DNA of 35,459 nt from a virus: positions 1-35,459 of IMG/VR virus record IMGVR_UViG_3300046002_003208, one strand, 5' to 3'. The notes beneath the pieces were generated by a model. The model was given only the letters and a program-made list of their open reading frames with translations. It did no database searches and was not told the DNA's origin. Below are positions 5,750 to 29,389 of this stretch, piece after piece. The translations under genes and the position numbers were made by a program. Position 1 is the stretch's first letter; every line of letters begins with the position of its first letter.

Positions 5750-6619
5750 ATGACAGTTCCGATATCAGGTTCATTTAATATGTTTGATGTATTGAATCCT
5801 ACTTCTATAGCAGGAGCTATATACTCTCATGGTGGGTCTGTATCAGGTGTAGATAATTTTAATGGACTCATAGCACAATCTGTAGCTGCATATTTTGACC
5901 CAACATATGCAGGAACTATTACAAATCCTATAGTAGATGTATTTAATACAGAGCAGTTTAGAAATTATCCATTTGTAACGGCTACACCAACACCCACACC
6001 TACTGCTACACCAACACCGACACCTACGCCAACTCCATGTCCTTCATATGGAACATTCTTGGGAACATATCAATCATGTGTTGTTTATGATTTATATACA
6101 TATGCCGTGTATGCTAACGGCTCTTGTGGAACATATCAAGAAGTTATAGGTATTGAATACAATTCAATTGCTTGTGGATATCCTACGCCAACACCAACAC
6201 CTATACCAACGGCTACACCGACACCTATACCACCAACAGCTACGCCAACACCAACACCTATACCAACGGCTACACCGACACCTATACCACCAACAGCTAC
6301 GCCAACACCAACACCTATACCAACGGCTACACCGACACCTATACCACCAACAGCTACGCCAACACCAACACCTACACCAAGTTGTACTTGTTGGACTTTT
6401 GAGAACGTAGGTGCATCAGTTGGAAATGTGTCTTATGATGGATGTGGAATAGGTTCTACACAAACTAATGTAGATATAGGAGATACTATTTGTAAATGTG
6501 TAACCTATGGAAATACTCCATCTGTCAACAGTGGTACAATAGAAGTAAGTCCTACATCAATAAATTGTGATGGTGATTTTGACTGTATTGATTGTACAGG
6601 TGGTGGAGGTGGTTCTTAA
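5750..6619 (+). CDS. Thr-Pro-rich mucin-like surface protein with Cys-rich modules
   Basis: The protein has 289 residues. Residues 1-75 (MTVPISGSFNMFDV...) resemble the N-terminal modules of phage tail-associated proteins with a 'SG-x-[LF]-x-M' opening. A first (Thr-Pro)n run covers about 76-95. A module with four Cys follows (about 96-142, CPSYGTFLGTYQSC to ACGYP). Then come about 65 residues of Thr/Pro/Ile/Ala repeats, three of them exact 19-residue copies. A second Cys-rich module runs from CTCWTFENVG to DCIDC, and the protein ends in a Gly tail. There is no enzyme motif. Exposed Thr-Pro stretches are typical of extended, heavily O-glycosylated stalks. Directly downstream are three sugar-handling genes, which suggests this protein as a glycosylation target (inference). 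It is probably a virion tail or surface protein. Confidence 0.75.
   Translation: MTVPISGSFNMFDVLNPTSIAGAIYSHGGSVSGVDNFNGLIAQSVAAYFDPTYAGTITNPIVDVFNTEQFRNYPFVTATPTPTPTATPTPTPTPTPCPSYGTFLGTYQSCVVYDLYTYAVYANGSCGTYQEVIGIEYNSIACGYPTPTPTPIPTATPTPIPPTATPTPTPIPTATPTPIPPTATPTPTPIPTATPTPIPPTATPTPTPTPSCTCWTFENVGASVGNVSYDGCGIGSTQTNVDIGDTICKCVTYGNTPSVNSGTIEVSPTSINCDGDFDCIDCTGGGGGS
6184..6375 (+). repeat. 57-bp perfect tandem repeat in Thr-Pro linker
   Basis: Three identical 57-bp copies start at 6184, 6241 and 6298. A partial copy from 6355 diverges after about 20 bases. The period is 19 codons, so copy-number change keeps the frame. The absence of silent differences between copies points to recent expansion. 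Confidence 0.95.
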
Positions 6620-6638
6620 ATGTATGAATTAATTTATG

Positions 6639-6646
6639 TATATTTG
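6639..6646 (+). promoter_or_regulatory. TATATTTG, Bacteroidota-like -7 element
   Basis: The octamer fits the Bacteroidota -7 consensus TAnnTTTG exactly and overlaps TATTTGTA (6641-6648), one mismatch from the TATTTATA box seen elsewhere. It lies 16 bases before the ATG of the glycosyltransferase at 6663, in a 43-base gap after the Thr-Pro gene. I see no convincing -33 TTG element. It may start the sugar cassette. Confidence 0.35.
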
Positions 6647-6662
6647 TAAATAAAAAGTTTTA

Positions 6663-7919
6663 ATGAAAAGCGTACATTCTCCAAAAATATTTGTGCAGAT
6701 TGCAAGTTACCGAGATTTGCAATTAATACCTACAATAGATGATATGTTAGCTAAAGCTAAAAATCCTAATAATTTAATTTTTGGGATATGTTGGCAGCAT
6801 GGGGATGATGAAGACATATCATATTATGATAATAAAAAAAATTTTAGAATATCAAAACATCATTACTCTGAAAGTAAAGGATTGGGTTGGGCAAGAAATA
6901 TAACAAATGAACTTTATGATGGTGAATTATATACTTTACAGATAGATTCCCATCACAGATTTGTTAAAAATTGGGATTCAATATTACTAGAAGATTTTAA
7001 GGAAGCTTTAAATTATTCAGAAAATCCAATAATAACAACATACTGTACTCCATTCGACCCTAATACTGACGAAAGTGAGTATATAAAAATTCCATGTTTA
7101 ATGTCTCAATATGAATTCAGTAGTGATAAACTTCTGATGAGTATGCCTTGGTATATACAAGATTACGAAAGTAGACATAATATTATAAGAGCAAGAACTA
7201 TAAGTGGTCATTTTTATTTTACATATGGTAAATTTATAAAAGATGTTCCATATGACCCTGAAATATATTTTGGAGGGTATACTGAAGAAACTACATTAAG
7301 TTTAAGAGCTTTTACCAATGGTTATGATTTTTACAGTCCATATAGAATGATTATGTGGCACGAATATACAAGAAGTTATAGACCTAAACATTGGGAAGAC
7401 CATGGAGAAGTTTCACAAACAGAGTATACAAGTACTCAAAGAGATATGTTCTCAAGAAATAAAACAAGACAACTTTTTGGTCAAGAGGATTATGGTATAA
7501 CAATAGATGAAAAATATGGAATTGGAAAGCAGAGAACTTTAGAAGATTATGAAATTTACGGTGGATTCAAATTTAAAGAATGTTTAATACAAAGATATAC
7601 CTTAGATGTTAAAGAACCTCCAAATCCAATTTCTTGGGAAGAAGACTTCAAAAGTAAAGAGTATACCTTAGATTGCATATGGGATTTAGAATTCTTTAGA
7701 AATTTTAATTTTACTAAACCAAAATTTCTAACACTAGGTGTTCATTCAGATACAGAAGAATTATATAGAATAGATTTATTAGATGATACTTACATAAATT
7801 TAAAAACAAATTTTTATGAAGTTACTATGAATGGTATTAAAGAACCTAAAAAAATAGTAATGTATTTATATGATGAAGATTTAGGTTGGAGTGAAAGATA
7901 TGAAAAATTATTTGTATGA
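6663..7919 (+). CDS. GT60-type (Skp1 GlcNAc-transferase-like) glycosyltransferase
   Basis: The protein has 418 residues. The N-terminal domain carries the signature I associate with Pfam 'GlcNAc' (PF11397, CAZy GT60): IFVQIASYRD (9-18), FGICWQ (40-45), GLGWARN (73-79), and the DxD-like metal-binding DSHHRF (95-100). The characterised eukaryotic member adds GlcNAc to a hydroxyproline of Skp1. Residues 200-290 continue the catalytic fold (GGYTEETTLSLRAFTNGYD). About 110 C-terminal residues form an extra beta-rich module that I do not recognise. The gene follows the Thr-Pro protein by 43 bases and its stop overlaps the next glycosyltransferase (ATGA at 7916-7919). Donor and acceptor cannot be read from the sequence. 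The family call is firm; the hydroxyproline target is inference. Confidence 0.82.
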   Translation: MKSVHSPKIFVQIASYRDLQLIPTIDDMLAKAKNPNNLIFGICWQHGDDEDISYYDNKKNFRISKHHYSESKGLGWARNITNELYDGELYTLQIDSHHRFVKNWDSILLEDFKEALNYSENPIITTYCTPFDPNTDESEYIKIPCLMSQYEFSSDKLLMSMPWYIQDYESRHNIIRARTISGHFYFTYGKFIKDVPYDPEIYFGGYTEETTLSLRAFTNGYDFYSPYRMIMWHEYTRSYRPKHWEDHGEVSQTEYTSTQRDMFSRNKTRQLFGQEDYGITIDEKYGIGKQRTLEDYEIYGGFKFKECLIQRYTLDVKEPPNPISWEEDFKSKEYTLDCIWDLEFFRNFNFTKPKFLTLGVHSDTEELYRIDLLDDTYINLKTNFYEVTMNGIKEPKKIVMYLYDEDLGWSERYEKLFV

Positions 7920-9100
7920 GAATAGCATTCATTACTATAGGTAACAGTCGTAGAAGTAACTATGTTAATGGTTATACTATGAGATATGGAGGAGGTAGTT
8001 GTTCAGGTACTGATACAAGTGTTATATTAATTGCTGAATATTTAAGTAAATTTGGAAATCAGATAGTAGTTGCTACTGATGATTTAGAACCTGAATTAAA
8101 AGATGAATATAGAAAATCAGAAATAAATTATGATTATGGATATCATTATAATGGAGTATCTTATACTAATTTAAATTTTGATGGTATATCAAATAAAAAA
8201 TTTGATATACTAATTAGTATGCTTTGGTTTGAGAATTATGATTTATTACCAATATCTGTTAGTAATTCTTTGATATATTGGTCACATATGCAATGGATAT
8301 ATGGTATTGATAGTATAGTGAACTATGTAAAAAAACATAATCTAAATTTAGGTATTGTACATATATCTGATTGGGAGAAAAAAATGACAGGAAATGTATC
8401 GAGAACCATACAAGAAAATTTGGGGGAAGAATCTGTAAAAATAGAAACAATACCTAATCCGATAATGGATGAAATGATAGATGAGGTACTAAAAGAAAAA
8501 CCTATTAAAAAACCCCGTAAATTTATATTCCATGCATCTTGGGCAAGAGGAGGAGACATAGCTTACTCAGCCATTGATAAACTTACTTATGAAGATAAGG
8601 AATTTCATGCATTTGATTACTTGATAACAATACCTAGTAATGATGCAAAATTCTTTTATAAACATGATGGAGTAGACAAAAAAACATTATTTAAGCACTT
8701 AGCTGAGAGTGAATATTTCATATATCCACTGTATACACCATATCAAGATGTTCATAAAGATACGTTCTCATGTGTAGTCGCTGAAGCTATAGCTCTAGGT
8801 GTAACAGTAATTACATACCCTTTAGGAGCATTGTATGACAATTATAAAGACTATTGTCAATGGTTACAACTTCCTGTAGGTTTTGATTTAGAAACTGTAC
8901 AAAATGAACCATTAACTAAAGATTTAGATGGTAAGTTTAAAATAGATGAAAATATTGTACATATGATTCATTATTTAGAACAGAATCCACAAGTTAAAAA
9001 TCTTGTTAAAGATAATGGTTATAATTATATTACTTCAAAATATAAATTAGAAACTATAGGAAATATGTGGTTAAATTATATTAGAAATTTTAATAAATAA
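7916..9100 (+). CDS. Glycosyltransferase, GT4/group 1-like
   Basis: The protein has 394 residues with a GT-B appearance. The N-terminal half begins MRIAFITIGN and has a Gly-rich loop (RYGGGSCSGTDTS, 23-35) that replaces the usual GG of group 1 enzymes. The C-terminal Rossmann half contains KFIFHASWARGGD (202-214) and KDTFSCVVAEAIALGVTVIT (281-300). Asp282 and Glu290 have E-x7-E-like spacing, with Asp in place of the first Glu, as in nucleotide-sugar-binding retaining transferases. Overlap with the GT60-type gene and a one-base gap to glf suggest coordinated synthesis of one glycan. Transfer of galactofuranose is possible because glf is next to it, but the sugar cannot be assigned. Confidence 0.75.
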   Translation: MRIAFITIGNSRRSNYVNGYTMRYGGGSCSGTDTSVILIAEYLSKFGNQIVVATDDLEPELKDEYRKSEINYDYGYHYNGVSYTNLNFDGISNKKFDILISMLWFENYDLLPISVSNSLIYWSHMQWIYGIDSIVNYVKKHNLNLGIVHISDWEKKMTGNVSRTIQENLGEESVKIETIPNPIMDEMIDEVLKEKPIKKPRKFIFHASWARGGDIAYSAIDKLTYEDKEFHAFDYLITIPSNDAKFFYKHDGVDKKTLFKHLAESEYFIYPLYTPYQDVHKDTFSCVVAEAIALGVTVITYPLGALYDNYKDYCQWLQLPVGFDLETVQNEPLTKDLDGKFKIDENIVHMIHYLEQNPQVKNLVKDNGYNYITSKYKLETIGNMWLNYIRNFNK

Positions 9101-9101
9101 T

Positions 9102-10181
9102 ATGATAGATTATCTAATAGTAGGCTCAGGATTTTACGGTTCTATATGTGCATACGAGCTAAATAAAAAAGGTTACAAAGTACGTGTAATAGATAAGAGA
9201 AGTCATATAGGCGGGAATTGCTATACATCAAATAGAGATGGTGTGCATGTTCATGAATACGGCCCTCACATATTCCATACCTCAAACAAAAAAGTTTGGG
9301 AATGGATAAATCAATTCGTTGAATTTAATAACTTTACACTAAGACCTGTAGCATCTTACAAGAATGAAATATATTCATTACCTTTTAATATGTGGACTTT
9401 TACAAAATTTTGGGGAGATGCTTCACCAAGCATAGTAAAAGAGGTTATTAGAATACAATCAAAGCACATAGATAATCCAACAAATTTAGAAGAACAAGCT
9501 ATCAAACTAGTAGGAACGGATGTATACGAAGCATTAATAAAAGGATATACTGAAAAGCAGTGGAGAAAGAAAGCTACAGAATTACCTAAAGAAATAATAG
9601 AAAGATTACCTGTAAGATTTACATATGACAACAATTATTTTAATGACATATATCAAGGCATACCTATAGGAGGATACACTCAAATTTTTGAAAAATTGTT
9701 AGAAAATATAGATGTTATCCTAAATACTGATTATTTTAATTCAGAATTACCTCCGCATAAAAATGTGATATATACAGGTGCTATTGATAAATTTTTTGAT
9801 TATAAGTATGGATTATTAGAGTATAAAACAACTAAATTTCAGCATACTCAAGTACATCTTGCAGATTTTCAAGGAACAGCAATGATAAACTATACAGATG
9901 TAGATATACCTTACACAAGAATTATAGAACATAATCATTTCGATTATAAAAAAATAGATTCTACATGGATAACTCATGAGTTTCCAATAGAGTACACGGA
10001 GATATCCGAACCTTTATATCCTGTAAATGATGTTGAAAATACTGAAAAATATAAAAAGTATAAAAGTTTGGCAGATGAACTTCCAAATGTTCATTTTGGC
10101 GGGAGATTAGCTGAGTATAAATACTATGATATGCATAATATAATTGAAAATGCTTTAAGTTATATAAATAGTAAATTTTAA
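9102..10181 (+). CDS. glf: UDP-galactopyranose mutase
   Basis: The protein has 359 residues, a little shorter than typical bacterial Glf (about 365-385). It is an FAD-dependent enzyme converting UDP-galactopyranose to UDP-galactofuranose (EC 5.4.99.9). The N-terminal dinucleotide fold is GSGFYG (8-13), followed by RVIDKRSHIGGNCYT and VHEYGPHIFHTSNKKVW, the classic Glf substrate/FAD region. Later come YTEKQW, RLPVRFTYDNNYFND with YQGIPIGGYT, and a C-terminal FGGRLAEYKYYDM closing the FAD site. The conserved arginines of the active site (RLPVR, GGRL) are present. It would supply UDP-Galf to a transferase, most simply one of the two encoded just upstream. Galf is common in bacterial surface glycans. 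Confidence 0.95.
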   Translation: MIDYLIVGSGFYGSICAYELNKKGYKVRVIDKRSHIGGNCYTSNRDGVHVHEYGPHIFHTSNKKVWEWINQFVEFNNFTLRPVASYKNEIYSLPFNMWTFTKFWGDASPSIVKEVIRIQSKHIDNPTNLEEQAIKLVGTDVYEALIKGYTEKQWRKKATELPKEIIERLPVRFTYDNNYFNDIYQGIPIGGYTQIFEKLLENIDVILNTDYFNSELPPHKNVIYTGAIDKFFDYKYGLLEYKTTKFQHTQVHLADFQGTAMINYTDVDIPYTRIIEHNHFDYKKIDSTWITHEFPIEYTEISEPLYPVNDVENTEKYKKYKSLADELPNVHFGGRLAEYKYYDMHNIIENALSYINSKF

Positions 10182-10194
10182 TTTAATTCTGATA

Positions 10195-10202
10195 TATTTA
10201 TA
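10195..10202 (+). promoter_or_regulatory. TATTTATA promoter-like box before terminase operon
   Basis: The octamer is preceded by GATA and lies 15 bases before the ATG at 10218, in a 36-base gap after glf. The same box recurs before other operon-leading genes. If it is a -10/-7 type element, the transcript leader would be only a few bases long. Confidence 0.5.
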
Positions 10203-10217
10203 GTAAAAATATATATT

Positions 10218-11009
10218 ATGAACATTAATAGAACAAGATTAACAGAAGCTGATTATTTAGAAAAAATTGGATATTTTATAGACAAACATATAAAATCAGG
10301 AAATAAAACAACTCCTGCCATATCAGATTTAATGGCATATGTTCAAAAAAGAATAGCTAGTCATAAAGATATCGGAGCATCCAAGAGTAAAAAAGTTATC
10401 CAAAAAGGATATGATGATACTAAACTTAATGAATTAGAAGCAAAAACTAAAGCAGAAAAGACAAAGTTTGTTGATAAACTTTCTACATTTATAGCTAAGA
10501 TGATAGCACCTACACTAGAGGATGAAACACTTTCGAATGAAGAAAAGAAAGATAAGATTGAGAAAGATATTAGAGGTGAAAAGTGGGTTGATTATCTTCC
10601 TGCTGATGTAGAAAATGAGCTGCGCTTTAGTAAATATGATTATATGTTTGAATCTAAGCGTAAAGTATCAAATAAAGATTTAAAACAATTATTAGAATTT
10701 ATACAAGAGGCTGAGAAATCAGAAAAGTTAAAATCAGAAAAACCAAAATCAGAAAAAGAACCTGAAAGTCCCAAAAAACCTGAAAGTCCTAAACAGGAGA
10801 AAAATTCTGAAGAAGAAGTATCACCTAGTAAATCAATATCATCTCTATTGAAATCTTCGGGATTTTCAAATTTTGTACAAGACGCTTCTAGGATGAGCTC
10901 ACGAAGAGATAAGGCAGAGGCTTATATTCAGATGTTGTCTGCTTTACCTAGCATATCGGATGCATTTATTCGTAAAGCAATTATAAATAAATTTAAAACA
11001 AGAGAATAA
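10218..11009 (+). CDS. Unrecognised Lys/Glu-rich protein upstream of terminase
   Basis: The protein has 263 residues. I do not recognise it. Residues 1-160 are helical and strongly charged (MNINRTRLTEADYLEKIGYF; later ETLSNEEKKDKIEKDIRGEK). Residues about 170-205 are a low-complexity Ser/Glu/Lys/Pro linker with repeated SEKPKSEK and ESPKKPESPK. The C-terminal 60 residues (SISSLLKSSGFSNFVQDASR ... AFIRKAIINKFKTRE) look like a compact helical domain. It is first in the run leading to the large terminase and lies behind a TATTTATA box. A small terminase or packaging-accessory role is possible from position, but the residues do not show it. Confidence 0.7.
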   Translation: MNINRTRLTEADYLEKIGYFIDKHIKSGNKTTPAISDLMAYVQKRIASHKDIGASKSKKVIQKGYDDTKLNELEAKTKAEKTKFVDKLSTFIAKMIAPTLEDETLSNEEKKDKIEKDIRGEKWVDYLPADVENELRFSKYDYMFESKRKVSNKDLKQLLEFIQEAEKSEKLKSEKPKSEKEPESPKKPESPKQEKNSEEEVSPSKSISSLLKSSGFSNFVQDASRMSSRRDKAEAYIQMLSALPSISDAFIRKAIINKFKTRE

Positions 11010-11015
11010 TAAATT

Positions 11016-11651
11016 ATGTCGAAGTTACAAAACATAAAAGCTGTAAGACAATTATTAGCGGGAGAGCATAAAATGCAGACTCGAACTATTGTTGGATATG
11101 AAAAAGCCAAAGATAGTAATATAAGAAACGTTGGTGAAATTTGGGAAGAAGTTTTACCAAATGGAGCTGTAGTTGAATGGGAGCAGAAAAAAGGGTATAG
11201 AGTGAAGAGACGGAAGAATTTAAAATCTCTATACCATTTAAAAGAAGAATTAGAATCTTATGACAAATGTTATGATGATTGCGAGAAACTAAAGACAAAA
11301 ATATATACTAGGTATGATAAACAATCTTGCATGTCTCACAACATGTGTTTAGATTGTTTGACAAGATTCGAAACATATCTAAAAGCAGATGGTAAATTTG
11401 AAGAATACGAAAAAAGGAAAAATTATGAATCTATAGTATCATTTTTTAAAGATGCTGAAAAAGAAAAAGAAATCATAAAATCCTCGTTAGATGCAATAGA
11501 GTATGTAGAAGAGGATGGTAGCAGAGAAATTTGGAATTTTCAAAATAAGAAAAGCTTTTTAGAAAAGATAGATAATGATTTTGAAAAATTAAAAGAAGAT
11601 ATGTTTGAGCCATATAAGGAATTCAGTAAGGAACAAAACTTAAATAACTAA
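11016..11651 (+). CDS. Conserved T4-like phage protein with Cys cluster
   Basis: The protein has 211 residues. The N terminus (KAVRQLLAGEHKMQTRTIVGYEK ... NVGEIWEEVLPNG) and the central Cys cluster (CYDDC; then CMSHNMCLDC near 109-118) followed by LTRFETYLKADGKFEEYEKR match a protein I know from many T4-like phages. Those proteins pair a CPxC-type half with a CxDC half to make a zinc ribbon. Here the first half is CYDDC, so the ribbon may be altered. The C-terminal 80 residues are helical and acidic. The function is unknown. It lies between an unrecognised charged protein and two membrane-associated proteins in the terminase operon, with gaps of 6 and 1 bases. Confidence 0.72.
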   Translation: MSKLQNIKAVRQLLAGEHKMQTRTIVGYEKAKDSNIRNVGEIWEEVLPNGAVVEWEQKKGYRVKRRKNLKSLYHLKEELESYDKCYDDCEKLKTKIYTRYDKQSCMSHNMCLDCLTRFETYLKADGKFEEYEKRKNYESIVSFFKDAEKEKEIIKSSLDAIEYVEEDGSREIWNFQNKKSFLEKIDNDFEKLKEDMFEPYKEFSKEQNLNN

Positions 11652-11652
11652 A

Positions 11653-11964
11653 ATGAACCAATATTTAAATTATTTGTATTATATAGTAATATCAGTAGTA
11701 TTGATATATGCTTATTATAAATTAAAAAAATATATAATTGAATATAGATTAAAAAAAAGTTTGGCAGAAGTAGAAAAAGTAGATAAACAAATAAATACAG
11801 AGGAAGAGAACATACTTAATAAAATAGAAGACAAAAAGAATAATATAAAAAATATTAAAGAAAAGATTAAAAAAATTGAAAATAATAGAGATAGTATAGT
11901 TAATGAAAATAAAACAATAGAAACTGATATAAAAAAAATATCTAAGAAATTAAAAAATTTATAA
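11653..11964 (+). CDS. Small membrane-anchored coiled-coil protein
   Basis: The protein has 103 residues. One N-terminal hydrophobic segment (YLYYIVISVVLIYAYY, about 7-22) is followed by KLKK and a long Lys/Glu/Asn-rich coiled coil to the C terminus (VEKVDKQINTEEENIL ... IKKISKKLKNL). This single anchor with a coiled-coil ectodomain is the architecture of an inner-membrane spanin, though no sequence family is recognised. The positive residues after the segment make the orientation ambiguous. Its stop codon directly abuts the ATG of the next gene, which also has membrane segments, so the two are probably co-translated and may act as a pair at the envelope. Confidence 0.65.
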   Translation: MNQYLNYLYYIVISVVLIYAYYKLKKYIIEYRLKKSLAEVEKVDKQINTEEENILNKIEDKKNNIKNIKEKIKKIENNRDSIVNENKTIETDIKKISKKLKNL

Positions 11965-12369
11965 ATGAAAAATACATTAACTATATTATTTCTATTAGTA
12001 AATACCGCATTGATATCTCAAGTAGATGTTGATACGGTATTTACTCAGAACCAAGTCATAAGAATATATAATTATATAGATTCATTAGAAACTACAAATA
12101 CAAAACTAAATAAAAATCTACAATTAAATAATATACTAGTACAGCAGTATAAAGATGAAAGTTTTAATTATCAAGAATTACTGAGTATAAATGATAAACT
12201 CATAAAATTAAAAGACGATAGATTAGACAATATGCAAAAAAGTATACAAGCATATGAAAATTATATAAAAGCAGATAAGAAAAATTTTATTGAAAAGCCT
12301 GTTGTTTGGTTTTTCATAGGAGTTATAAGTGCATATACATCCTATAGAATTGTGGCAAATATAAAATAG
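11965..12369 (+). CDS. Secreted/membrane protein: signal-like N terminus, coiled coil, C-terminal TM
   Basis: The protein has 134 residues. It begins MKNTLTILFLLVNTALISQV, a signal-peptide-like start that has no lipobox Cys. A helical coiled-coil region follows (SLETTNTKLNKNLQLNNILV ... LKDDRLDNMQKSIQAYENYI). A C-terminal hydrophobic segment (VVWFFIGVISAYTSYRIVA, about 113-131) ends with NIK. The product would span the periplasm with the C terminus in the inner membrane. That resembles a unimolecular spanin except for the missing lipobox. It abuts both neighbours with no intergenic base. A lysis or envelope role is inferred from topology only. Confidence 0.62.
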   Translation: MKNTLTILFLLVNTALISQVDVDTVFTQNQVIRIYNYIDSLETTNTKLNKNLQLNNILVQQYKDESFNYQELLSINDKLIKLKDDRLDNMQKSIQAYENYIKADKKNFIEKPVVWFFIGVISAYTSYRIVANIK

Positions 12370-13953: not shown

Positions 13954-13957
13954 CCAT
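13941..13957 (+). promoter_or_regulatory. 17-base perfect palindrome at terminase-portal junction
   Basis: ATGGTTAT-T-ATAACCAT is an exact inverted repeat centred on 13949 and covers the terminase stop codon (13951-13953). As RNA, a loop of at least 3 bases would leave about 7 pairs. No U-tract follows, so it does not look like a terminator. It could be an RNA-processing or protein-binding site. Confidence 0.45.
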
Positions 13958-13974
13958 ATATAAAAAGTAAAAGT

Positions 13975-15801: not shown

Positions 15802-15806
15802 TTGTA

Positions 15807-20608: not shown

Positions 20609-20617
20609 ATTTATGTA

Positions 20618-20625
20618 TATTTATA
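20618..20625 (+). promoter_or_regulatory. TATTTATA promoter-like box before phoH
   Basis: It is preceded by TGTA and placed 10 bases after the terminator T-tract and 23 bases before the phoH ATG. A promoter is needed here because the previous transcript ends, which supports the box as a real promoter element. Confidence 0.55.
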
Positions 20626-20648
20626 TATGAATACCAAACAATAAATAA

Positions 20649-21305: not shown

Positions 21306-21319
21306 AGTAAAATAGTAGT

Positions 21320-21676: not shown

Positions 21677-21696
21677 AATAATATATAAAACTGTAC

Positions 21697-21704
21697 TATT
21701 TATA
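21697..21704 (+). promoter_or_regulatory. TATTTATA promoter-like box
   Basis: The context is CTGTAC-TATTTATA-TAAAAG. It lies 12 bases before the ATG at 21717, in a 40-base gap. It probably begins the run of tail-accessory genes. Confidence 0.5.
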
Positions 21705-21716
21705 TAAAAGAATAGT

Positions 21717-22645: not shown

Positions 22646-22671
22646 TAATGATTTTTTCTTAAATAAATATA

Positions 22672-22679
22672 TATTTATA
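22672..22679 (+). promoter_or_regulatory. TATTTATA promoter-like box
   Basis: The context is AATATA-TATTTATA-GTAAATA. It lies 22 bases before the ATG at 22702, in a 56-base gap that otherwise holds only an A-rich leader. Confidence 0.5.
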
Positions 22680-22701
22680 GTAAATATAAAACTACGTAAC
22701 A

Positions 22702-23634
22702 ATGGCTCAATGGAAAAAAGTATTAGTAAGTGGTTCTAATGCACATGTAACATCGATAACTTCTTCAGTACTAACTAATGATAACTTAGTCATTGCAGGA
22801 GTTGGTGGTAGATTAGAATCAAGTGGTCTTACATTTAATGGAACTAAACTTAATCTAACAGCAGCAACAGTAATATCAGGTTCTATTTTTTCAGGTTCAT
22901 TTGTAGGAAATGGTGCAGGATTAACAGGCTTAGTTTCTGCATTAACTATAGTAGATGAATTTGCAGGTTCGGGTACTGTATCACTAAAAACACAAAATCT
23001 AACTGTAACGGGAGGTGAAGGTATTGACACAGCAATGTCAGGACAGACACTAACCATTTCAGGTGAAAATTCATCATATACAAATAAAGGTGTAGCATCA
23101 TTTTCAAGTGGTAGTTTCTCGGTTAGTTCGGGACATGTTTCACTTGCTAATGCCACAACAGGAGCAGTATTAAGTATTCTAGGAACTGCTAATGAAGTTA
23201 CTGCATCAAGAACTAATGGTACGGTAACTATAGGATTACCTGACAATGTTATTGTTACAGGAGATTTAACTGTAGGAGGTGATTTAGCAGTAAGTGGAGA
23301 TTTAACTTATATTAACACAACTAATTTATTAGTTAAAGACCCATTTATACTAGTTAACTCAGGCTCAGTAAATACTGATTCGGGTATAGTATTTGGAGGT
23401 AGTACAGGTGTAGCAAATAGTGGTTCAGCATTATTTTGGGATGTTAGCTATAATACTAATGATGGTAGATTAGCTGTTGCAAATAATATATCTTGGAATA
23501 ATACAGGAAATCAAACACCAAGTTATTATGTGGCAGGTGTATTTGAAGGAACTGAAGCTAATGCTGCTACTGCTGAAGCTGACCATGTAGGTAATATAAG
23601 AGTAGAAAGTGGACAAATATATATTTACGTATAA
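22702..23634 (+). CDS. Fibre-like structural protein with WKKVLVSGSNA N terminus
   Basis: The protein has 310 residues. The N-terminal motif MAQWKKVLVSGSNAHV is nearly the same as that of the collagen-like fibre at 23994 (MPNWKKVIVSGSNAEL), suggesting a common virion-attachment segment. The body is Gly/Ser/Thr-rich beta repeats, including GSIFSGSFVGNGAGLTGL, DNVIVTGDLTVGGDLAVSGD (left-handed-helix-like spacing) and LLVKDPFILVNSGS. It ends in a compact region with IRVESGQIYIYV. There is no S74 chaperone or enzymatic motif. It is probably a tail-fibre or decoration protein, preceded by its own TATTTATA box. Confidence 0.75.
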   Translation: MAQWKKVLVSGSNAHVTSITSSVLTNDNLVIAGVGGRLESSGLTFNGTKLNLTAATVISGSIFSGSFVGNGAGLTGLVSALTIVDEFAGSGTVSLKTQNLTVTGGEGIDTAMSGQTLTISGENSSYTNKGVASFSSGSFSVSSGHVSLANATTGAVLSILGTANEVTASRTNGTVTIGLPDNVIVTGDLTVGGDLAVSGDLTYINTTNLLVKDPFILVNSGSVNTDSGIVFGGSTGVANSGSALFWDVSYNTNDGRLAVANNISWNNTGNQTPSYYVAGVFEGTEANAATAEADHVGNIRVESGQIYIYV

Positions 23635-23636
23635 AT

Positions 23637-23891
23637 TTGAAATTGTTAATAAATAAAATATTAAAAGTTTTGCCAACAGTTATTAAAAAAGGAATTGCAA
23701 GAAGTCTTTCTCCAACCTATACAGAAAGTGGGGAAGAAGTACAATCAAAAATAACATACACTCCTGAAGAATTACAATATGTAATAACAGTATTGGGAGA
23801 ACAAACATTTAAAATAAAAGATATAGAATTTATATATAATCTTATAATAAAATTACAAGAAGATTATATACAACAATCAAGTAAAAAATAG
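23637..23891 (+). CDS. Unrecognised 84-residue protein, TTG start
   Basis: I do not recognise this protein. No in-frame ATG exists near the 5' end; the frame is open from 23595 and TTG at 23637, two bases after the previous stop, is the best start. The N terminus is hydrophobic and basic (KLLINKILKVLPTVIKKGIA), resembling an amphipathic or membrane-associated helix. The rest (ITYTPEELQYVITVLGEQTF ... IYNLIIKLQEDYIQQ) is helical, like small tail-accessory proteins with a 'TPEELQFLL' motif. The position between fibre genes suggests an assembly accessory. Moderate doubt remains because of the start codon. Confidence 0.6.
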   Translation: MKLLINKILKVLPTVIKKGIARSLSPTYTESGEEVQSKITYTPEELQYVITVLGEQTFKIKDIEFIYNLIIKLQEDYIQQSSKK

Positions 23892-23924
23892 TGTTTTATA
23901 ATAATATATAGAATATTAAATAAA

Positions 23925-23982
23925 TTTATTATTGGCCCTATGGGGAAGTGGGCTTCGAATAGAAGTAACCAACCATAATAAA
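23925..23982 (+). ncRNA. Predicted structured RNA element between fibre genes
   Basis: This short GC-richer island lies in an A+T-rich 102-base gap. The outer stem pairs 23925-23932 plus 23934-23935 with 23973-23982 (10 pairs, T23933 bulged). Inside are two hairpins: 23936-23938 with 23950-23952 (CCC/GGG, 11-base loop), and 23953-23956 with 23962-23965 (CTTC/GAAG, loop GAATA). The layout resembles a small three-way junction ending 12 bases before the ATG at 23994. No U-tract follows, so termination is unlikely. It could be a cis-acting leader structure or processing site. I paired it by eye. Confidence 0.4.
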
Positions 23983-23993
23983 AAATATAAGAA

Positions 23994-25787
23994 ATGCCTA
24001 ATTGGAAAAAGGTGATAGTCAGTGGTTCTAATGCAGAACTAAACAAGTTAAATGTATCTACATCATTTACAGCAAGTGGTTTATTATACCCTACAGCAGA
24101 TGGAGTATTAGGACAAGTTTTAGGAACTGATGGTTTAGGTAAATTATCATTTAGTAATGTAACAGTATCTCAAGTAAACACTATAGCTGCATCTTTTACA
24201 GCTACCTCATCTATAACAGTACCTCATAATTTCAATTCTAAAAATGTAATAGTATCGGCTTATGATGCTTCTGATTTTTACTTTGTTCCCGAAACTATAA
24301 ATTTACTTGACAATAATAGAGTAAAATTAACATTCTCTAACCCATCTACAGGACATGTTGTAGTGGCTAAGGGAGGTCATATAGTTAGTGCAAGTATGCA
24401 GGGAAACCAAGGACTTGTAGGTGCACAAGGATTTCAAGGACTTAGAGGTTTCCAAGGATTTCAAGGTTTCCAAGGATTTCAAGGTATTCAAGGCCCTATA
24501 AGAGAAGTTAGCGAGGTATTCACAGTATCTGCATCTTTTTCCGCTACCTCATCTATAACAGTAACACACAATTTTAATTCTAAAAATGTTATAGTTTCTG
24601 TTTATGATGCTTCTGATTTTTACTTCGTACCTAATCAAATTAAATTACTAGACAATAATAGGGTAAAACTATCTTTTATTAGCCCATCAACAGGATATGT
24701 CGTTGTAGCAAAAGGAGGACATATTGTTAGTGGTAGTTTATATATAGCAGGCCCACAAGGTCTACAAGGCACTACAGGAATACAAGGAACACAGGGTACA
24801 CAGGGTACACAGGGTACACAGGGTACACAGGGTACACAGGGAAACCAAGGTATTCAAGGAACTAACGGAACAGTAGGTGTTAATGGAGCTCAAGGCAATC
24901 AAGGAACTCAAGGTAACCAAGGTGCTCAAGGAAACCAAGGTGCTCAAGGAACTCAAGGTAACCAAGGTGCTCAGGGTAACCAAGGTGCTCAAGGTATTCA
25001 AGGAACAGCAGGTACAAACGGAGCTCAAGGAAACCAAGGTGCTCAAGGTAACCAAGGTATTCAAGGTACAGTAGGTACTCAAGGTTTCCAAGGCAATCAA
25101 GGCCCTACAGGAATTCAAGGTACAGTAGGAACTCAAGGAGCAACAGGAGCAAGTGCAGGAATAACATCATACACAAACCCTGCTGATAATAGAGTATTAA
25201 CATCGGTATCATCAACAGCTATAAATGCAGAAGCAAATTTAACATTTGATGGAAGTACATTAGGTGTATCGGGGCTTACTTACACATCGAGATTACAGGT
25301 AGCTGGAAATGGGTCAGATGCAGGTTCTCAGTTATCTCTTTGGGCTGATGCAAATGGTAATACAGGTATAGCAGGATTTAACATTACTTTTAATACAGGT
25401 GGTAATAATGCAAGAACACAAAGTTTATTTATATCCAACACAGGAGCAGCTACTTTTAGTAGTACAGTTACTTGTACAACATTAACAGAAACTTCAACTA
25501 TAAGGATAAAAGAAAATGTAGAAGATATTGAAAATCCCTTAGAAATAGTTAAAAAGTTAAGAGGCATACAATACAACAAGATAGGAAACAATAACAAAGA
25601 AATAGGTGTTATAGCAGAAGAAGTATACGATATTTTACCACAGATTGTTAACTTGGACGATGAGAATCAACCATCTTCTGTGTCTTATGGTAGATTAACA
25701 GCATTATTAATAGAGGTTGTGAAAAAACAAGATGAGCAAATTGAAAATCTAACAAAAAGGATTGAGGAGTTAGAAAATAAATTATAA
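23994..25787 (+). CDS. Collagen-like tail fibre with duplicated beta domain and S74 chaperone
   Basis: The protein has 597 residues. The N-terminal attachment motif is PNWKKVIVSGSNA (2-14). A domain of about 67 residues occurs twice, at 67-133 and 181-248, sharing TSSITV, HNFNSKNVIVS, YDASDFYFVP and VVVAKGGHIVS. Short (about 136-168) and long (about 253-390) collagen-like Gly-x-Gln stretches follow each copy. The C-terminal S74-type chaperone begins near TSTIRIKENV (500-509), with IGVIAEEVYDILPQIV and a terminal coiled coil QIENLTKRIEELENKL. The self-cleavage motif reads ST-I-R-I-K instead of SDxRxK, so autocleavage may be altered. It is probably a trimeric receptor-binding or side fibre, paralogous in design to the 961-residue fibre upstream. 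Confidence 0.87.
   Translation: MPNWKKVIVSGSNAELNKLNVSTSFTASGLLYPTADGVLGQVLGTDGLGKLSFSNVTVSQVNTIAASFTATSSITVPHNFNSKNVIVSAYDASDFYFVPETINLLDNNRVKLTFSNPSTGHVVVAKGGHIVSASMQGNQGLVGAQGFQGLRGFQGFQGFQGFQGIQGPIREVSEVFTVSASFSATSSITVTHNFNSKNVIVSVYDASDFYFVPNQIKLLDNNRVKLSFISPSTGYVVVAKGGHIVSGSLYIAGPQGLQGTTGIQGTQGTQGTQGTQGTQGTQGNQGIQGTNGTVGVNGAQGNQGTQGNQGAQGNQGAQGTQGNQGAQGNQGAQGIQGTAGTNGAQGNQGAQGNQGIQGTVGTQGFQGNQGPTGIQGTVGTQGATGASAGITSYTNPADNRVLTSVSSTAINAEANLTFDGSTLGVSGLTYTSRLQVAGNGSDAGSQLSLWADANGNTGIAGFNITFNTGGNNARTQSLFISNTGAATFSSTVTCTTLTETSTIRIKENVEDIENPLEIVKKLRGIQYNKIGNNNKEIGVIAEEVYDILPQIVNLDDENQPSSVSYGRLTALLIEVVKKQDEQIENLTKRIEELENKL
24791..24841 (+). repeat. 9-bp microsatellite in fibre shaft
   Basis: Five perfect copies of ACAGGGTAC start at 24791, 24800, 24809, 24818 and 24827, followed by ACAGGG (836-841). 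Each unit encodes Gly-Thr-Gln. Slippage would change shaft length by three residues without breaking the frame. Confidence 0.93.
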
Positions 25788-25806
25788 ATAAACTAAATAA
25801 ACTAAA

Positions 25807-26049
25807 ATGAAAAAGTACTATCAAGTAGAGAATTATGGAAATGGGTTTATTACTCACCAAGAAAATGAAACGGCACATGTTGCAGGATATCCGGGCAATA
25901 TTTGGGTGACAGAAAACACAACATGGGCACAAAGAGTAAATGCTGTTGAAAAGACTAAAGCGGAGGCACAAGCTATTGTAGATGCTGCTGTCGAGGCAAG
26001 TTATGTCCCACCCAATAGCACAACACCTCCACCTATTGTTTTACCTTAA
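25807..26049 (+). CDS. Unrecognised 80-residue protein
   Basis: I do not recognise a family. It opens MKKYYQVENYGNGFITHQEN, then HVAGYPGNIWVTENTTWAQR, a helix VEKTKAEAQAIVDAAVEASY and a Pro-rich tail (NSTTPPPIVLP). The 'W-x-x-x-T-x-A-Q-x-x-x-D-A' helix is reminiscent of small proteins that follow fibre genes in phages, but that is only an impression. It lies 19 bases after the collagen-like fibre and 9 bases before the next gene, so it is part of the tail-accessory transcript. Confidence 0.62.
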   Translation: MKKYYQVENYGNGFITHQENETAHVAGYPGNIWVTENTTWAQRVNAVEKTKAEAQAIVDAAVEASYVPPNSTTPPPIVLP

Positions 26050-26058
26050 AAATTAAAT

Positions 26059-26742
26059 ATGAGTAAAGAGTTGCAGATTACGGAAGATTTACGAGAGATT
26101 GTAAATGTTTTAAATGAAGAAGATGCTAATACTATTTTATCATTAAAAGATGAGTTAGTTGATAATTGGCATAAGAAGCAGATTTTTAGAACAGAGACAG
26201 AAATGAGAGTCTCTGTTTTAAATGACGCTAAACACCCTACAAATGCTTCTAAATATTGGCAATCAGTCAGAGAGATGTCAGCACATTTTGATGCATTGAT
26301 GAATTTATCTTTTGATTTGAGAAAGAATACGGTAGAGAATTTAAGATATAATAGACAGATGGAAGAGTATACGGAAGACCCTAATGCTAATAGATTTGAC
26401 ATCATGGAACTTGAAATTGATATTGATAGAAATTTATATGATAGGTCATGTATGTTACAAGTAGCTAAAGATAGGGTTAGGGAATTAAGTTTATGGAGTA
26501 CAATTAAGAAAGAATTAGACGATAATTCTTTTGATGCAGAAAATGTAAACACTCACCAAGCAGAGTCTTTGCATAGGTATTTTGAGAATAGGGTTAAGTC
26601 TTTAAATGATTCATCTGCCCCGGGGGAAATCATCAATGCCATGGGCCCGTACCTATCCTTCAATCGATTAAAAACAGATGATGGTAAATTAAGAAATTTT
26701 TTGGGAGAAGTATCTGAAGACACTAAAAAGAAGTTAAACTAG
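26059..26742 (+). CDS. Conserved phage helical protein (unknown function)
   Basis: The protein has 227 residues and is nearly all helical. The section NWHKKQIFRTETEMRVSVLN, DAKHPTNASKYWQSVREM and the following long helix (LMNLSFDLRKNTVENLRYN) form a block I associate with a conserved T4-like marine phage protein of unknown function. The C-terminal part (HQAESLHRYFENRVKSLND ... GPYLSFNRLKTDDGKLRNFLG) is less familiar. There is no membrane segment or enzyme motif. It sits just before three oxygenase genes (4-base gap) and may share their transcript, but a functional tie is not shown. Confidence 0.68.
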   Translation: MSKELQITEDLREIVNVLNEEDANTILSLKDELVDNWHKKQIFRTETEMRVSVLNDAKHPTNASKYWQSVREMSAHFDALMNLSFDLRKNTVENLRYNRQMEEYTEDPNANRFDIMELEIDIDRNLYDRSCMLQVAKDRVRELSLWSTIKKELDDNSFDAENVNTHQAESLHRYFENRVKSLNDSSAPGEIINAMGPYLSFNRLKTDDGKLRNFLGEVSEDTKKKLN

Positions 26743-26746
26743 TTTT

Positions 26747-27331
26747 ATGACCAATTTCATTTATGCTAAAAAAAATGCTATATCAATTAATACATGTTAC
26801 AATCTGATAAAAGCATTTGAAGAATCTGATTTAAAACAAGCAGGAGTTCTATACGGCCCAAACGGAATATCCTCAGACAGCGACAAGAAATCCACAGACA
26901 TCACATTTGACCCATCGTTCCTAAAGAAAGAACCATGGGCAATGTTATTAGAAGAGGTAATCTCATCGGTTCAAAATGGAGCACTAGACTATTTGAATAG
27001 ACATTCCACAGCTATGACTAAAATGGATGCTATTGATTTGTACACTTATTTTAATATTCAGAAGTATGAACCTAACGAAGGATTCTTTGGATGGCATTGC
27101 GAAAGAGCAGGTAATAAACATTCAGATAGATTACTAGTTTGGATGATATATTTAAATGATTTAACGGACAGAGGAGAGACGGAGTTTTTTTATCAGCAGC
27201 ATTTTGAGACACCTGAGAGAGGAAAACTATTGATATGGCCCTCCGATTGGACTCACCTGCATAGAGGAGTTCCGTCTCCTACTCAAACAAAGTATATATT
27301 AACAGGTTGGTTTACCCATATAAAAAATTAA
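26747..27331 (+). CDS. 2-oxoglutarate/Fe(II) oxygenase, prolyl-4-hydroxylase-like
   Basis: The protein has 194 residues. The double-stranded beta-helix core holds iron ligands His117 and Glu119 (GWHCER), distal His172 (WTHLHRG) and Lys182, 10 residues after the distal His. That is the same His-to-Lys spacing as in prolyl 4-hydroxylases for 2-oxoglutarate binding. Supporting motifs are VWMIYLNDL, RGETEFFYQQ and KLLIWPSDW. The first carboxylate is Glu instead of the usual Asp. Such enzymes hydroxylate proline or other residues with O2 and 2-oxoglutarate. It is first of three oxygenases in a row. The substrate is unknown; the Thr-Pro-rich protein in this window is an attractive candidate (inference). 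Confidence 0.82.
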   Translation: MTNFIYAKKNAISINTCYNLIKAFEESDLKQAGVLYGPNGISSDSDKKSTDITFDPSFLKKEPWAMLLEEVISSVQNGALDYLNRHSTAMTKMDAIDLYTYFNIQKYEPNEGFFGWHCERAGNKHSDRLLVWMIYLNDLTDRGETEFFYQQHFETPERGKLLIWPSDWTHLHRGVPSPTQTKYILTGWFTHIKN

Positions 27332-27334
27332 GTT

Positions 27335-27931
27335 ATGGAGTTTAGTGTTCATCAAGAGAATTGGTTTTCCACTCCAATATGGGAATCCGAAATAAAGAAT
27401 ATAAACAATCAGGAAATTAAAGATTACTGTTTATATTTGAAAGACAATACTAAGGGAGTTAATATTTCGAATAGGGGAGGATGGCATAGCAGTGAGATAT
27501 TACTCCCAATGCCACAAGATTTGAGAAGTTTGTTTAGCAATCTTGAAGTATTTGTGAATGAGAATTGCTTTAAAGAAATGGGAGTACCTAATTTAAAGTT
27601 TGGTAATTTTTGGGTAAATATAAATACACCTAACTCCTACAACCTTGCACACGACCATCAAAATAGTATATTATCAGGAGTGTATTATGTTTCTGTACCT
27701 CACGACAATATGGGTGATTTAGTTTTGCATAGAGGAGATACAGCAGAGTATTTCTTAAAATCAGATGTAGAAAGAATTGGCACAAAAGCAAACTCTTTTG
27801 TAGCGGTAAAAAAACCTATAGAATCTGTCTTTTATATATTTCCATCATGGGTTAAGCATCATGTGGAATCGAATAATTCGCAAGGAGATAGAATATCAAT
27901 AGCATTTAATTTCATCGCAGAAAATAAATAA
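27335..27931 (+). CDS. Putative 2OG-Fe(II) oxygenase (TIGR02466-like), copy 1
   Basis: The protein has 198 residues. It belongs to the phage/cyanobacterial family opening '(F/Y)-x-T-P-[IL]' (here NWFSTPIWESEI). The centre has NFWVNINTP followed by NLAHDHQNSILSGVYYVSVP, with candidate iron ligands His106 and His108, or Asp107 by the HxD/HxH pattern. The distal His175 is in FPSWVKHHVESN, and Arg186 in DRISIAFN would hold 2-oxoglutarate. The reaction and substrate are uncharacterised for the family; hydroxylation is expected. It is separated from its neighbours by 3 and 4 bases, so it is co-transcribed with the P4H-like gene and the second family copy. Confidence 0.8.
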   Translation: MEFSVHQENWFSTPIWESEIKNINNQEIKDYCLYLKDNTKGVNISNRGGWHSSEILLPMPQDLRSLFSNLEVFVNENCFKEMGVPNLKFGNFWVNINTPNSYNLAHDHQNSILSGVYYVSVPHDNMGDLVLHRGDTAEYFLKSDVERIGTKANSFVAVKKPIESVFYIFPSWVKHHVESNNSQGDRISIAFNFIAENK

Positions 27932-27935
27932 AGTT

Positions 27936-28574
27936 ATGAACGCACAAGTTTATCCCATATTTCCAACACCTCTATATGTTGTAAATTATGATAAAGATTT
28001 AAAACATGTAATAGATTATTTTGACAGTTCAGAAATGCAAGATACTAAAGCAGGATATGGAATGATATCTACTAATAGTTACATTTTAGATAATCCTATA
28101 TGCAATGAATTAAATACATTTCTTATGTCATGTTTTGAAGATTTTGCAACAAACATTATGAGATATAGATTTAAAAAATTAGGATTTGCACAATCATGGT
28201 TAACATATAAGAATCCCAACCAAATTCATAAAGCACATACTCATCCAAATACATTATTAGCGGGAGTATTCTATTATGATGCACATGAGGATGATGCTGC
28301 TATATGTTTTTCAAAAGATGTTAAATCATTTAATAGGTCATACTTCGAACCATCTTTACATGACGATTATCAAAACCATGTATTTTCACAAGAAGAGATT
28401 TACTACATGCCAAAGAAAAATGATTTCCTCATATTTCCATCATGGTTAACACATGGTGTACCACCTAACAAAACAAACAGAGTGAGAAAAGCATTAGGAG
28501 TAAATGCCTTAACGAAAGGAACATTAGGAGATAAAGAAACCATATCTGAAATAATTTTTGGAAGATACGCATGA
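27936..28574 (+). CDS. Putative 2OG-Fe(II) oxygenase (TIGR02466-like), copy 2
   Basis: The protein has 212 residues and the same fold as the preceding gene: IFPTPLYVVNYDKD at the start, AQSWLTYKNP, candidate iron ligands His101 and His103 (KAHTHPNTLLAGVFYY), distal His173 (FLIFPSWLTHGVPPN) and Arg182/Arg184 for 2-oxoglutarate. The two copies are well diverged, so this is not a recent duplication and they may have different substrates. Its stop overlaps the sulfotransferase start (ATGA at 28571-28574), which argues that the oxygenases and sulfotransferase act in one pathway. The substrate is unknown. Confidence 0.8.
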   Translation: MNAQVYPIFPTPLYVVNYDKDLKHVIDYFDSSEMQDTKAGYGMISTNSYILDNPICNELNTFLMSCFEDFATNIMRYRFKKLGFAQSWLTYKNPNQIHKAHTHPNTLLAGVFYYDAHEDDAAICFSKDVKSFNRSYFEPSLHDDYQNHVFSQEEIYYMPKKNDFLIFPSWLTHGVPPNKTNRVRKALGVNALTKGTLGDKETISEIIFGRYA

Positions 28575-29389
28575 AACAGAAGATATTTTTTAATTCCACA
28601 TTACCAAGAAGTGGTAGTACCTTATTACAAAACATAATGGGACAAAATCCTGAATTCTTTGTAACACCGACATCAGGTCTAATTGATTTGATGTTAGGAG
28701 CAAGAATAGGATACAATCAAAACTATGAATCAAAGGCAGGTGATACAGAAATGTGGAGAGAAGGATTCTATAAATTTTGCGGGGAAGGAATAAAAGCATA
28801 TATAGCATCACAAACATCAAAACCATATTACTTAGATAAGAATAGAGTGTGGGGATTTTACTACAATTTATTAACGCATATTGTAGAAAAACCAAAAGTG
28901 TTATACATGGTTAGAGATTTACCATCTATCTTCGCATCTATGGAAAAGAAGTTTAGAATGAATCCTGACAAAGATGATGGTACTATGGATAATGTAAAGA
29001 TGAAAGGAACTACAACACATAAGAGAGTTGAATTATGGGCTCAATCACATCCTGTAGGTTATTCATTAGAAAAATTATATCAGACTTTGTTGGATGGTAC
29101 AGCTTCCAACTTTTTATTTATTAGATATGAAGATTTATGTAGTAATCCTGACAATGTAATGAAAAGCATCTATCAATATTTGGAGTTAGATGAATTTAAA
29201 CATGATTTCCAACATATAAGTCAAGTCACTACCGAAAATGATGCAATACATGGAATATATGGAGACCACATCATAAGAAATTCTCTTAAAATGTTGCCAA
29301 ATGATTCAAAAGAAATATTAGGAATGCATACGGTAGATTTGATTAAAGAGAATTATAAATGGTATTATGATTTCTTTGGGTATAAATAA
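28571..29389 (+). CDS. Sulfotransferase (PAPS-dependent)
   Basis: The protein has 272 residues. The 5'-phosphosulfate-binding loop is LPRSGSTLLQ (11-20). The 3'-phosphate-binding element is MVRDLPSIFASM with Arg115 and Ser119. Later come FLFIRYEDLCSNP and IYQYLELDEF, typical of the Sulfotransfer family. It transfers sulfate from PAPS to a hydroxyl or amine, commonly on a carbohydrate or tyrosine. No membrane anchor is present, so it acts in the cytosol of the infected cell and depends on host PAPS. Translation is coupled to the preceding oxygenase. The acceptor is not known; a phage-made glycan or hydroxylated protein would fit the context. Confidence 0.85.
   Translation: MKQKIFFNSTLPRSGSTLLQNIMGQNPEFFVTPTSGLIDLMLGARIGYNQNYESKAGDTEMWREGFYKFCGEGIKAYIASQTSKPYYLDKNRVWGFYYNLLTHIVEKPKVLYMVRDLPSIFASMEKKFRMNPDKDDGTMDNVKMKGTTTHKRVELWAQSHPVGYSLEKLYQTLLDGTASNFLFIRYEDLCSNPDNVMKSIYQYLELDEFKHDFQHISQVTTENDAIHGIYGDHIIRNSLKMLPNDSKEILGMHTVDLIKENYKWYYDFFGYK

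What the first reader, a model, noticed from the sequence alone, without database searches (positions are those of the whole stretch)
5750..29389. Possible phage-encoded hydroxyproline-linked glycosylation of a mucin-like virion protein
Seen: a (Thr-Pro)n protein (5750-6619) is followed directly by a GT60/PF11397-type transferase (6663-7919), a GT4-like enzyme and glf. The window also encodes a 2OG/Fe(II) oxygenase with prolyl-4-hydroxylase spacing (His172 to Lys182; 26747-27331) and a sulfotransferase. Known: the characterised GT60 enzyme adds GlcNAc to hydroxyproline of Skp1 after P4H action, and the glycan is then extended. Inferred: this phage carries the parts for an analogous two-step route acting on its own Thr-Pro stalk, with Galf and sulfate as possible extensions. 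I know of no described phage system of this kind. Weak points: hydroxylase and transferase are 19 kb apart, and the hydroxylase uses HxE instead of HxD.
Basis: partly seen in the sequence, partly recalled or inferred. Interest (0 to 1): 0.85.

Follow-up and report, generated by a model that had tools for sequence, protein, structure and literature searches.

The report
Phage mucin-like protein with its glycosyltransferase
This phage, like dozens of relatives, carries a threonine-proline-rich virion-type protein right beside an enzyme related to those that start sugar chains on mucins, so it probably builds a mucin-like sugar coat on part of its particle, with the sugars more likely on threonine than on hydroxyproline as first proposed.

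Summary
The genes are real. 5750-6619 is a Thr-Pro stalk protein, 6663-7919 a strong PF11397/GT60 member (E 1.6e-58), followed by a weak GT4-like enzyme and glf. 26747-27331 folds like prolyl hydroxylases. The link between them is not supported. Across 53 dereplicated viral GT60 loci, 26 have a TP-rich gene within 600 bp (about 7 expected), and GT60 is the commonest Pfam family beside TP-rich phage genes picked without regard to it. glf occurs in 21 of 32 GT60 records, but the hydroxylase family in only 3, including none of the 14 other records with an adjacent TP gene. None of 32 hydroxylase records carries GT60. GT60 enzymes include polypeptide alpha-GlcNAc-transferases that act directly on Thr of mucins and need no hydroxylase; the predicted structure's top 50 PDB matches are all polypeptide GalNAc-transferases. 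Best reading: a recurrent phage mucin-type O-glycosylation module (TP protein, GT60, GT4-like, other transferases, UDP-galactopyranose mutase), glycans probably Thr-linked and Galf-containing, like T. cruzi core 2 mucins. The oxygenase/sulfotransferase cassette is separate. No biochemistry exists; donor, acceptor residue and virion location are inferred. The fold search alone cannot tell Hyp- from Thr-specific GT60 enzymes.

The parts
5750..6619 (+). Mucin-like Thr-Pro-rich protein: N-terminal domain, TP linker, small Cys-containing domain, TP repeat tract, Cys-containing C-terminal domain; proposed acceptor
   Evidence: no Pfam hit; tract length varies between near-identical siblings
6183..6380 (+). 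57-bp tandem repeat, 3.5 copies (TPTPTPIPTATPTPIPPTA)
   Evidence: full 19-residue copies at protein residues 146, 165, 184
6663..7919 (+). GT60/PF11397 glycosyltransferase, polypeptide HexNAc-transferase fold; invariant D95-S96-H97, E208/E209, H233
7916..9100 (+). GT4-like glycosyltransferase, family F1, directly downstream of GT60 in 25 of 53 loci
9102..10181 (+). UDP-galactopyranose mutase (glf), supplies UDP-Galf; found in 21 of 32 GT60 records
2863..5748 (+). Upstream neighbour: collagen-like tail-fibre-type protein with S74 chaperone domain (supports virion context; not a proposed substrate)
26747..27331 (+). Prolyl-hydroxylase-like 2OG-Fe(II) oxygenase (HxE); judged a separate cassette
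27335..28574 (+). Two PF13759 2OG-Fe(II) oxygenases in the same separate cassette
28571..29389 (+). Sulfotransferase in the same separate cassette

Best explanation
5750-10181 is a phage-encoded mucin-type O-glycosylation module. The TP-rich protein is made in the host cytoplasm. The GT60 enzyme transfers a HexNAc (GlcNAc expected) from its UDP-sugar directly to Thr hydroxyls of the TP repeats. The GT4-like enzyme, with other transferases in relatives, extends the chain, and glf supplies UDP-Galf. The glycoprotein is mounted on the virion as a hydrated, extended stalk or adhesin. Shown here: gene identities, recurrent TP-GT60-GT4-glf linkage, conserved active-site residues, polypeptide-GalNAc-transferase fold. 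Inferred: donor sugar, Thr as acceptor, order of extension, virion location and benefit. The hydroxylase/sulfotransferase cassette is not a required part.
For: TP-rich gene within 600 bp of GT60 in 26 of 53 loci dereplicated at 90% identity (6.8 expected; highest of 20,000 draws 17), and 7 of 21 at 60% (1.7 expected). The TP proteins beside GT60 have several unrelated N-termini, so the tract itself is the common factor. Reverse test: among 122 neighbours of TP-rich phage genes picked only by their repeat, PF11397 is the commonest Pfam family (4). (TP)4 tracts lie in 22 of 32 GT60 records but in neither complete relative lacking GT60, Mel-JY01 and immuto. glf in 21 of 32. AF2 model pLDDT 93.4; top 50 PDB matches all polypeptide GalNAc-transferases, best E 3e-11. 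D95/H97/H233 are invariant and match in kind and approximate spacing the Mn ligands Asp224/His226/His359 of GalNAc-T2. GT60 pp-alpha-GlcNAcTs start mucin-type glycans on Thr/Ser in Dictyostelium and T. cruzi, and T. cruzi core 2 is beta-Galf on alpha-GlcNAc-Thr. Tract Thr is 26-46% of residues and usually at least equal to Pro.
Against: No biochemistry. 27 of 53 GT60 loci have no TP gene within 600 bp, and in 2 complete jumbo phages (XacN1, RAS14) GT60 is not beside one. TP-rich genes are common in environmental phages and most of the sampled ones have no GT60 next to them. Foldseek TM-scores are only about 0.5. No solved Hyp-specific GT60 (Gnt1) structure surfaced in the PDB searches, so the fold match cannot separate Hyp- from Thr-specific GT60 enzymes. 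Nothing shows directly that the TP protein is in the virion.
Confidence: 0.65

Rival explanations
1. One reading: the P4H-like enzyme hydroxylates prolines of the TP stalk and GT60 adds GlcNAc to hydroxyproline (Skp1/Gnt1-like), extended by Galf and sulfate.
For: All genes are in one 35-kb record. The oxygenase folds like prolyl hydroxylases (top hits PBCV-1 collagen prolyl hydroxylase, P. putida P4H, PHD2; algal P4H with a (Ser-Pro)5 peptide also listed). The stalk offers 45 prolines.
Against: PF13640 in 3 of 32 GT60 records and phrog_61 in 4 of 32, none of them among the 14 other TP-adjacent records of at least 50 kb. 0 of 32 hydroxylase records, some with 86-100% identical hydroxylase, carry GT60. 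In six related contigs the hydroxylase travels in a cassette with two other oxygenases and the sulfotransferase, without GT60. 429 phage records have this oxygenase and 3 have GT60, from non-overlapping phage groups.
Confidence: 0.08
2. GT60 and partners do not act on the TP protein but on another acceptor (other virion proteins, host surface glycan, or a host protein), and the TP gene is a neighbour by tail-region synteny.
For: Half of the GT60 loci have no adjacent TP gene. TP-rich genes are common in phage tail regions. Other glycan genes (GT25-like, GT11-like, carbamoyltransferase, HtrL_YibB) surround GT60.
Against: The background was drawn from genes of the same loci, so regional synteny is controlled. 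TP proteins with unrelated N-termini occupy the slot directly upstream of GT60. The closest folds are protein O-glycosyltransferases.
Confidence: 0.17
3. Both apply in this phage: GT60 modifies Thr directly, and the P4H-like enzyme independently hydroxylates prolines of the stalk or of other proteins.
For: The window has both, and the hydroxylase fold and most active-site residues are intact. Its own collagen-like fibres have no Pro in the Y position, so they are not classical collagen hydroxylase substrates.
Against: No linkage between the cassettes. The hydroxylase substrate is unknown and could be host EF-Tu or anything else.
Confidence: 0.1

Closest known systems
Mucin-type O-glycosylation started by GT60 polypeptide alpha-GlcNAc-transferases (Trypanosoma cruzi mucins, Dictyostelium; PMC3769586, PMC8724618, PMC3188802)
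   Same: Same enzyme family by Pfam, Thr-rich repeat acceptor candidate, Galf supply gene parallel to T. cruzi core 2 (beta-Galf on alpha-GlcNAc-Thr)
   Different: Phage-encoded, no Golgi, acceptor gene and transferase directly adjacent; activity not shown
Dictyostelium Skp1 hydroxyproline GlcNAc-transferase Gnt1 (GT60)
   Same: Same GT60/PF11397 family; cytoplasmic enzyme
   Different: No linked prolyl hydroxylase in most phages with GT60; acceptor candidate is a Thr-Pro repeat, not a single Hyp
Animal and Toxoplasma polypeptide GalNAc-transferases (GT27)
   Same: Fold, DxH...H metal motif, preference for Thr/Pro-rich mucin sequence (general knowledge)
   Different: About 12% identity, no ricin-type lectin domain detected in Pfam
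Mycobacteriophage virion glycosylation by phage glycosyltransferases (Freeman et al. 2023, cited in PMC12619734; the paper itself not readable here)
   Same: Phage-encoded transferases decorate virion proteins
   Different: There the glycans sit at C-termini of capsid and tail tube subunits; no GT60, TP-mucin or glf module described there as far as I know

Membership tests
GT60 / PF11397 | Significant match to the family profile | tested here: met
   E 1.6e-58, 199 bits against cut-off 21
GT60 / PF11397 | GT-A fold related to polypeptide GalNAc-transferases with metal motif | tested here: met
   AF2 pLDDT 93.4 and PDB top 50 all GalNAc-Ts; D95-S96-H97 and H233 invariant in 43 sequences
GT60 / PF11397 | Transfers GlcNAc from UDP-GlcNAc to a protein hydroxyl | not testable with these tools
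   needs enzyme assay
Mucin-type pp-alpha-HexNAc-transferase system | Thr/Ser-rich, Pro-containing repeat acceptor associated with the enzyme | tested here: met
   26 of 53 loci, reverse test 4 of 122 neighbours; acceptor role itself inferred
Skp1-type Hyp glycosylation (Gnt1) | Functional partnership with a prolyl 4-hydroxylase | tested here: not met
   3 of 32 GT60 records have PF13640; 0 of 32 hydroxylase records have GT60
Skp1-type Hyp glycosylation (Gnt1) | Acceptor residue is hydroxyproline | not testable with these tools
   needs peptide mass spectrometry
Prolyl 4-hydroxylase (2OG-Fe(II) oxygenase) | Fold closest to prolyl hydroxylases | tested here: met
   all listed PDB hits are prolyl hydroxylases, best E 2e-11
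Prolyl 4-hydroxylase (2OG-Fe(II) oxygenase) | HxD...H iron triad plus 2OG-binding Lys | tested here: not met
   Asp replaced by Glu in all 80 sequences; His and Lys present. Does not exclude activity
UDP-galactopyranose mutase | PF03275 GLF domain with FAD/NAD-binding N-terminus | tested here: met
   E 3.4e-73 plus NAD_binding_8
Phage virion glycoprotein | Glycan found on a structural protein of the particle | not testable with these tools
   needs virions; the window is from metagenomic data

The most novel reading that the evidence does not exclude
In this phage the stalk carries both modifications: GT60 glycosylates Thr, or hydroxyproline made by the phage's own HxE prolyl hydroxylase, and the glycan is extended with Galf and sulfate, giving a virus-encoded route like a plant cell-wall or Skp1 pathway.
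Probability: 0.07. Interest if true: 0.9.

Novelty: new variant of a known kind. Interest (0 to 1): 0.7.

Why it matters
If true, tailed phages of many environments encode a compact mucin-type O-glycosylation system, acceptor and initiating enzyme side by side, which has been described in eukaryotes but, as far as I found in the held open-access library, not in phages. It would explain what many Thr-Pro repeat proteins in environmental phages are for, give a two-gene system for making defined mucin-like glycoproteins in bacteria, and bear on the origin of GT60/GT27 enzymes, since the family also occurs in bacteria, some copies beside TP-rich proteins with secretion-type N-termini.

Tried and rejected
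Hyp-linked route: tested by two-way co-occurrence with PF13640, phrog_61 and PF13759 and rejected as the general mechanism. Collagen-like fibres as hydroxylase substrate: 0 Pro in the Y position in 111 triplets examined. Sequence-only PDB search of GT60: no relevant hit with single sequence or profile; only the fold search was informative. Literature searches for GT60 with bacteriophage (0 papers), PF11397 (1 algal genome), and phage mucin-like O-glycosylation gave no prior description. PHD2 D315E literature, to judge HxE activity, was not held. The Freeman 2023 paper was not held.

Full report
Observation. The window is a 35-kb IMG/VR fragment of a T4-like phage: Gp23-type capsid, T4-type portal and terminase, with the terminase nearest to Microcystis phage Mel-JY01 (53%) and Flavobacterium phages immuto (50%). 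Every gene named in the finding is present. 6663-7919 is a full PF11397 protein (E 1.6e-58) and also matches phrog_24687 (E 8e-83). 9102-10181 is UDP-galactopyranose mutase. 7916-9100 is only weakly GT4-like by Pfam (E 0.013) and PHROGs (E 1e-5). The TP protein has a 57-bp repeat, 3.5 copies at 99%, and its repeat number differs between near-identical siblings (protein lengths 270, 289, 323 and 395 aa in L004, window, L003, L005). The gene upstream of it, 2863-5748, is a collagen-like protein with an S74 chaperone domain, as in tail fibres.

Is the TP-GT60 pairing real? A scan of viral contigs with the GT60 protein gave 80 loci, 53 groups at 90% identity. In 26 of 53 a TP-rich ORF (at least 60% T+P in a 40-residue window) lies within 600 bp, in 24 of them upstream and on the same strand. 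Other large genes of the same loci give 6.8 on average and at most 17 in 20,000 draws. The excess holds at other thresholds and at 60% dereplication (7 of 21 against 1.7), although the tightest settings only equal or barely exceed the highest simulated value. The TP proteins in this slot start with several unrelated N-terminal sequences, so it is the TP tract that recurs. In reverse, 58 contigs chosen only for a Thr-Pro repeat pattern gave 122 neighbour proteins; PF11397 was the most frequent Pfam family among them (4), ahead of a phage fibre repeat (3). (TP)4-type DNA tracts are in 22 of 32 GT60-bearing records and in none of them with the pattern read backwards, while Mel-JY01 and immuto, which lack GT60, have none. 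TP tracts are not exclusive to GT60 phages: 9 of 32 hydroxylase records, eight of them one near-identical lineage, have them too.

What travels with it? Directly downstream of GT60, 25 of 53 loci have the same GT4-like family and 21 of 53 have glf within a few genes; between them lie one to three further transferases, GT25-like or GT11-like. Of 32 GT60 records (the window, 29 IMG/VR contigs of at least 50 kb and two isolate genomes), 21 carry glf. Sibling L003 has a GT25-like gene between GT4 and glf that the window lacks.

Is the hydroxylase part of it? The oxygenase is well founded as a prolyl-hydroxylase-like fold: AF2 pLDDT 92.9, and all listed PDB matches are prolyl hydroxylases. Its HxE motif, His170, His172 and Lys182 are conserved in essentially all 80 sequences. 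But PF13640 occurs in only 3 of 32 GT60 records (window, one 335-kb and one 91-kb record), and in none of the 14 other records with an adjacent TP gene; phrog_61 and PF13759 give 4 and 2. Conversely none of 32 records holding the window's hydroxylase or its relatives has PF11397 (the tool warns that nothing rang in its controls, but the same profile finds the gene in the window). In six related contigs examined the hydroxylase sits in a conserved block with two more oxygenases and the sulfotransferase and no GT60, and none of the window's terminase, portal or capsid genes was matched nearby. Such oxygenases are common in marine T4-like cyanophages: 429 phage records match by tblastn, and 14 of 16 cyanophages in PMC3037559 have numerous 2OG-Fe(II) oxygenases. 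The window's own collagen-like fibres have no Pro in the Y position, so they are not obvious substrates. The records are mostly fragments, so absence is not proof for any one of them; XacN1 and RAS14 are deposited as complete genomes and have no PF13640 match.

Mechanism. GT60 holds two activities: the Skp1 hydroxyproline enzyme and polypeptide alpha-GlcNAc-transferases that start mucin-type glycans on Thr/Ser (PMC8724618, PMC3188802). The AF2 model (pLDDT 93.4) matches polypeptide GalNAc-transferases in all 50 listed PDB hits (E 3e-11 to 3e-8, TM 0.44-0.53 normalised to query). Invariant D95, H97 and H233 correspond in order and approximate spacing to Mn ligands Asp224, His226 and His359 of GalNAc-T2; this is a motif comparison, not a superposition. 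In T. cruzi, alpha-GlcNAc-Thr is extended by beta-Galf in core 2 (PMC3769586), which is the closest known parallel to TP + GT60 + glf. The fold match cannot itself exclude a hydroxyproline acceptor, because Gnt1 is in the same family and no Gnt1 structure surfaced; the argument against Hyp rests on the missing hydroxylase. Thr is 26-46% and Pro 18-37% of tract residues across the TP proteins examined, with Thr at least equal to Pro in most.

Known and new. Fold search of viral models finds GT60-like proteins annotated as Glycosyltransferase (GlcNAc) in uncultured Caudovirales phages and in giant viruses, so phage GT60 genes are already in databases. Virion glycosylation by phage enzymes is known in mycobacteriophages (cited in PMC12619734). 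What I did not find described is the pairing of GT60 with Thr-Pro proteins and glf, as a phage mucin-type system. Literature coverage is limited to open-access papers.

Verdict. Observation confirmed; interpretation partly supported. A phage mucin-type O-glycosylation module is likely (0.65), with Thr rather than hydroxyproline as the probable acceptor. Interest 0.7 because the linkage is broad and directly testable with two genes, though the chemistry is entirely inferred.

Noticed in passing
L206, L211, L221, L265 (bacterial genomes): Bacterial GT60 genes beside TP-rich proteins whose N-termini look like Tat signal peptides (by eye), suggesting secreted bacterial mucin-like proteins with a dedicated transferase.
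   Followed up: partly
L231 1547-5155, L238 4381-7998 (Sphingomonas MAGs): GT60 directly after a large TP-containing protein that looks baseplate-like at its N-terminus, perhaps a contractile injection or prophage locus.
   Followed up: no
window 25807-29389: Block of two small genes, three 2OG-Fe(II) oxygenases and a sulfotransferase conserved as a unit in related viral contigs with different surroundings, often with the 29421-type repeat genes.
   Followed up: partly
window 29421-32326: Three tandem paralogues built of CTEEYNGTSWSAGGALITAR-type repeats (132-bp DNA repeat), no Pfam hit for the one tested (29421-30386); possibly propeller-like tail proteins.
   Followed up: no
window 4834-5246 and 24408-25138: Collagen-like Gly-X-Gln tracts with almost no proline in two S74-chaperone fibres.
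   Followed up: partly
L054, L066, L068, L075, L076 downstream of GT60; XacN1 L203 11409-13706: In more distant GT60 phages a carbamoyltransferase and/or an HtrL_YibB protein follows GT60, suggesting carbamoylated glycans.
   Followed up: no
window 2-655: Degenerate 81-bp repeats encoding a Lys/Glu-rich TQKQKEEYIDWR-type repeat protein at the window start.
   Followed up: no
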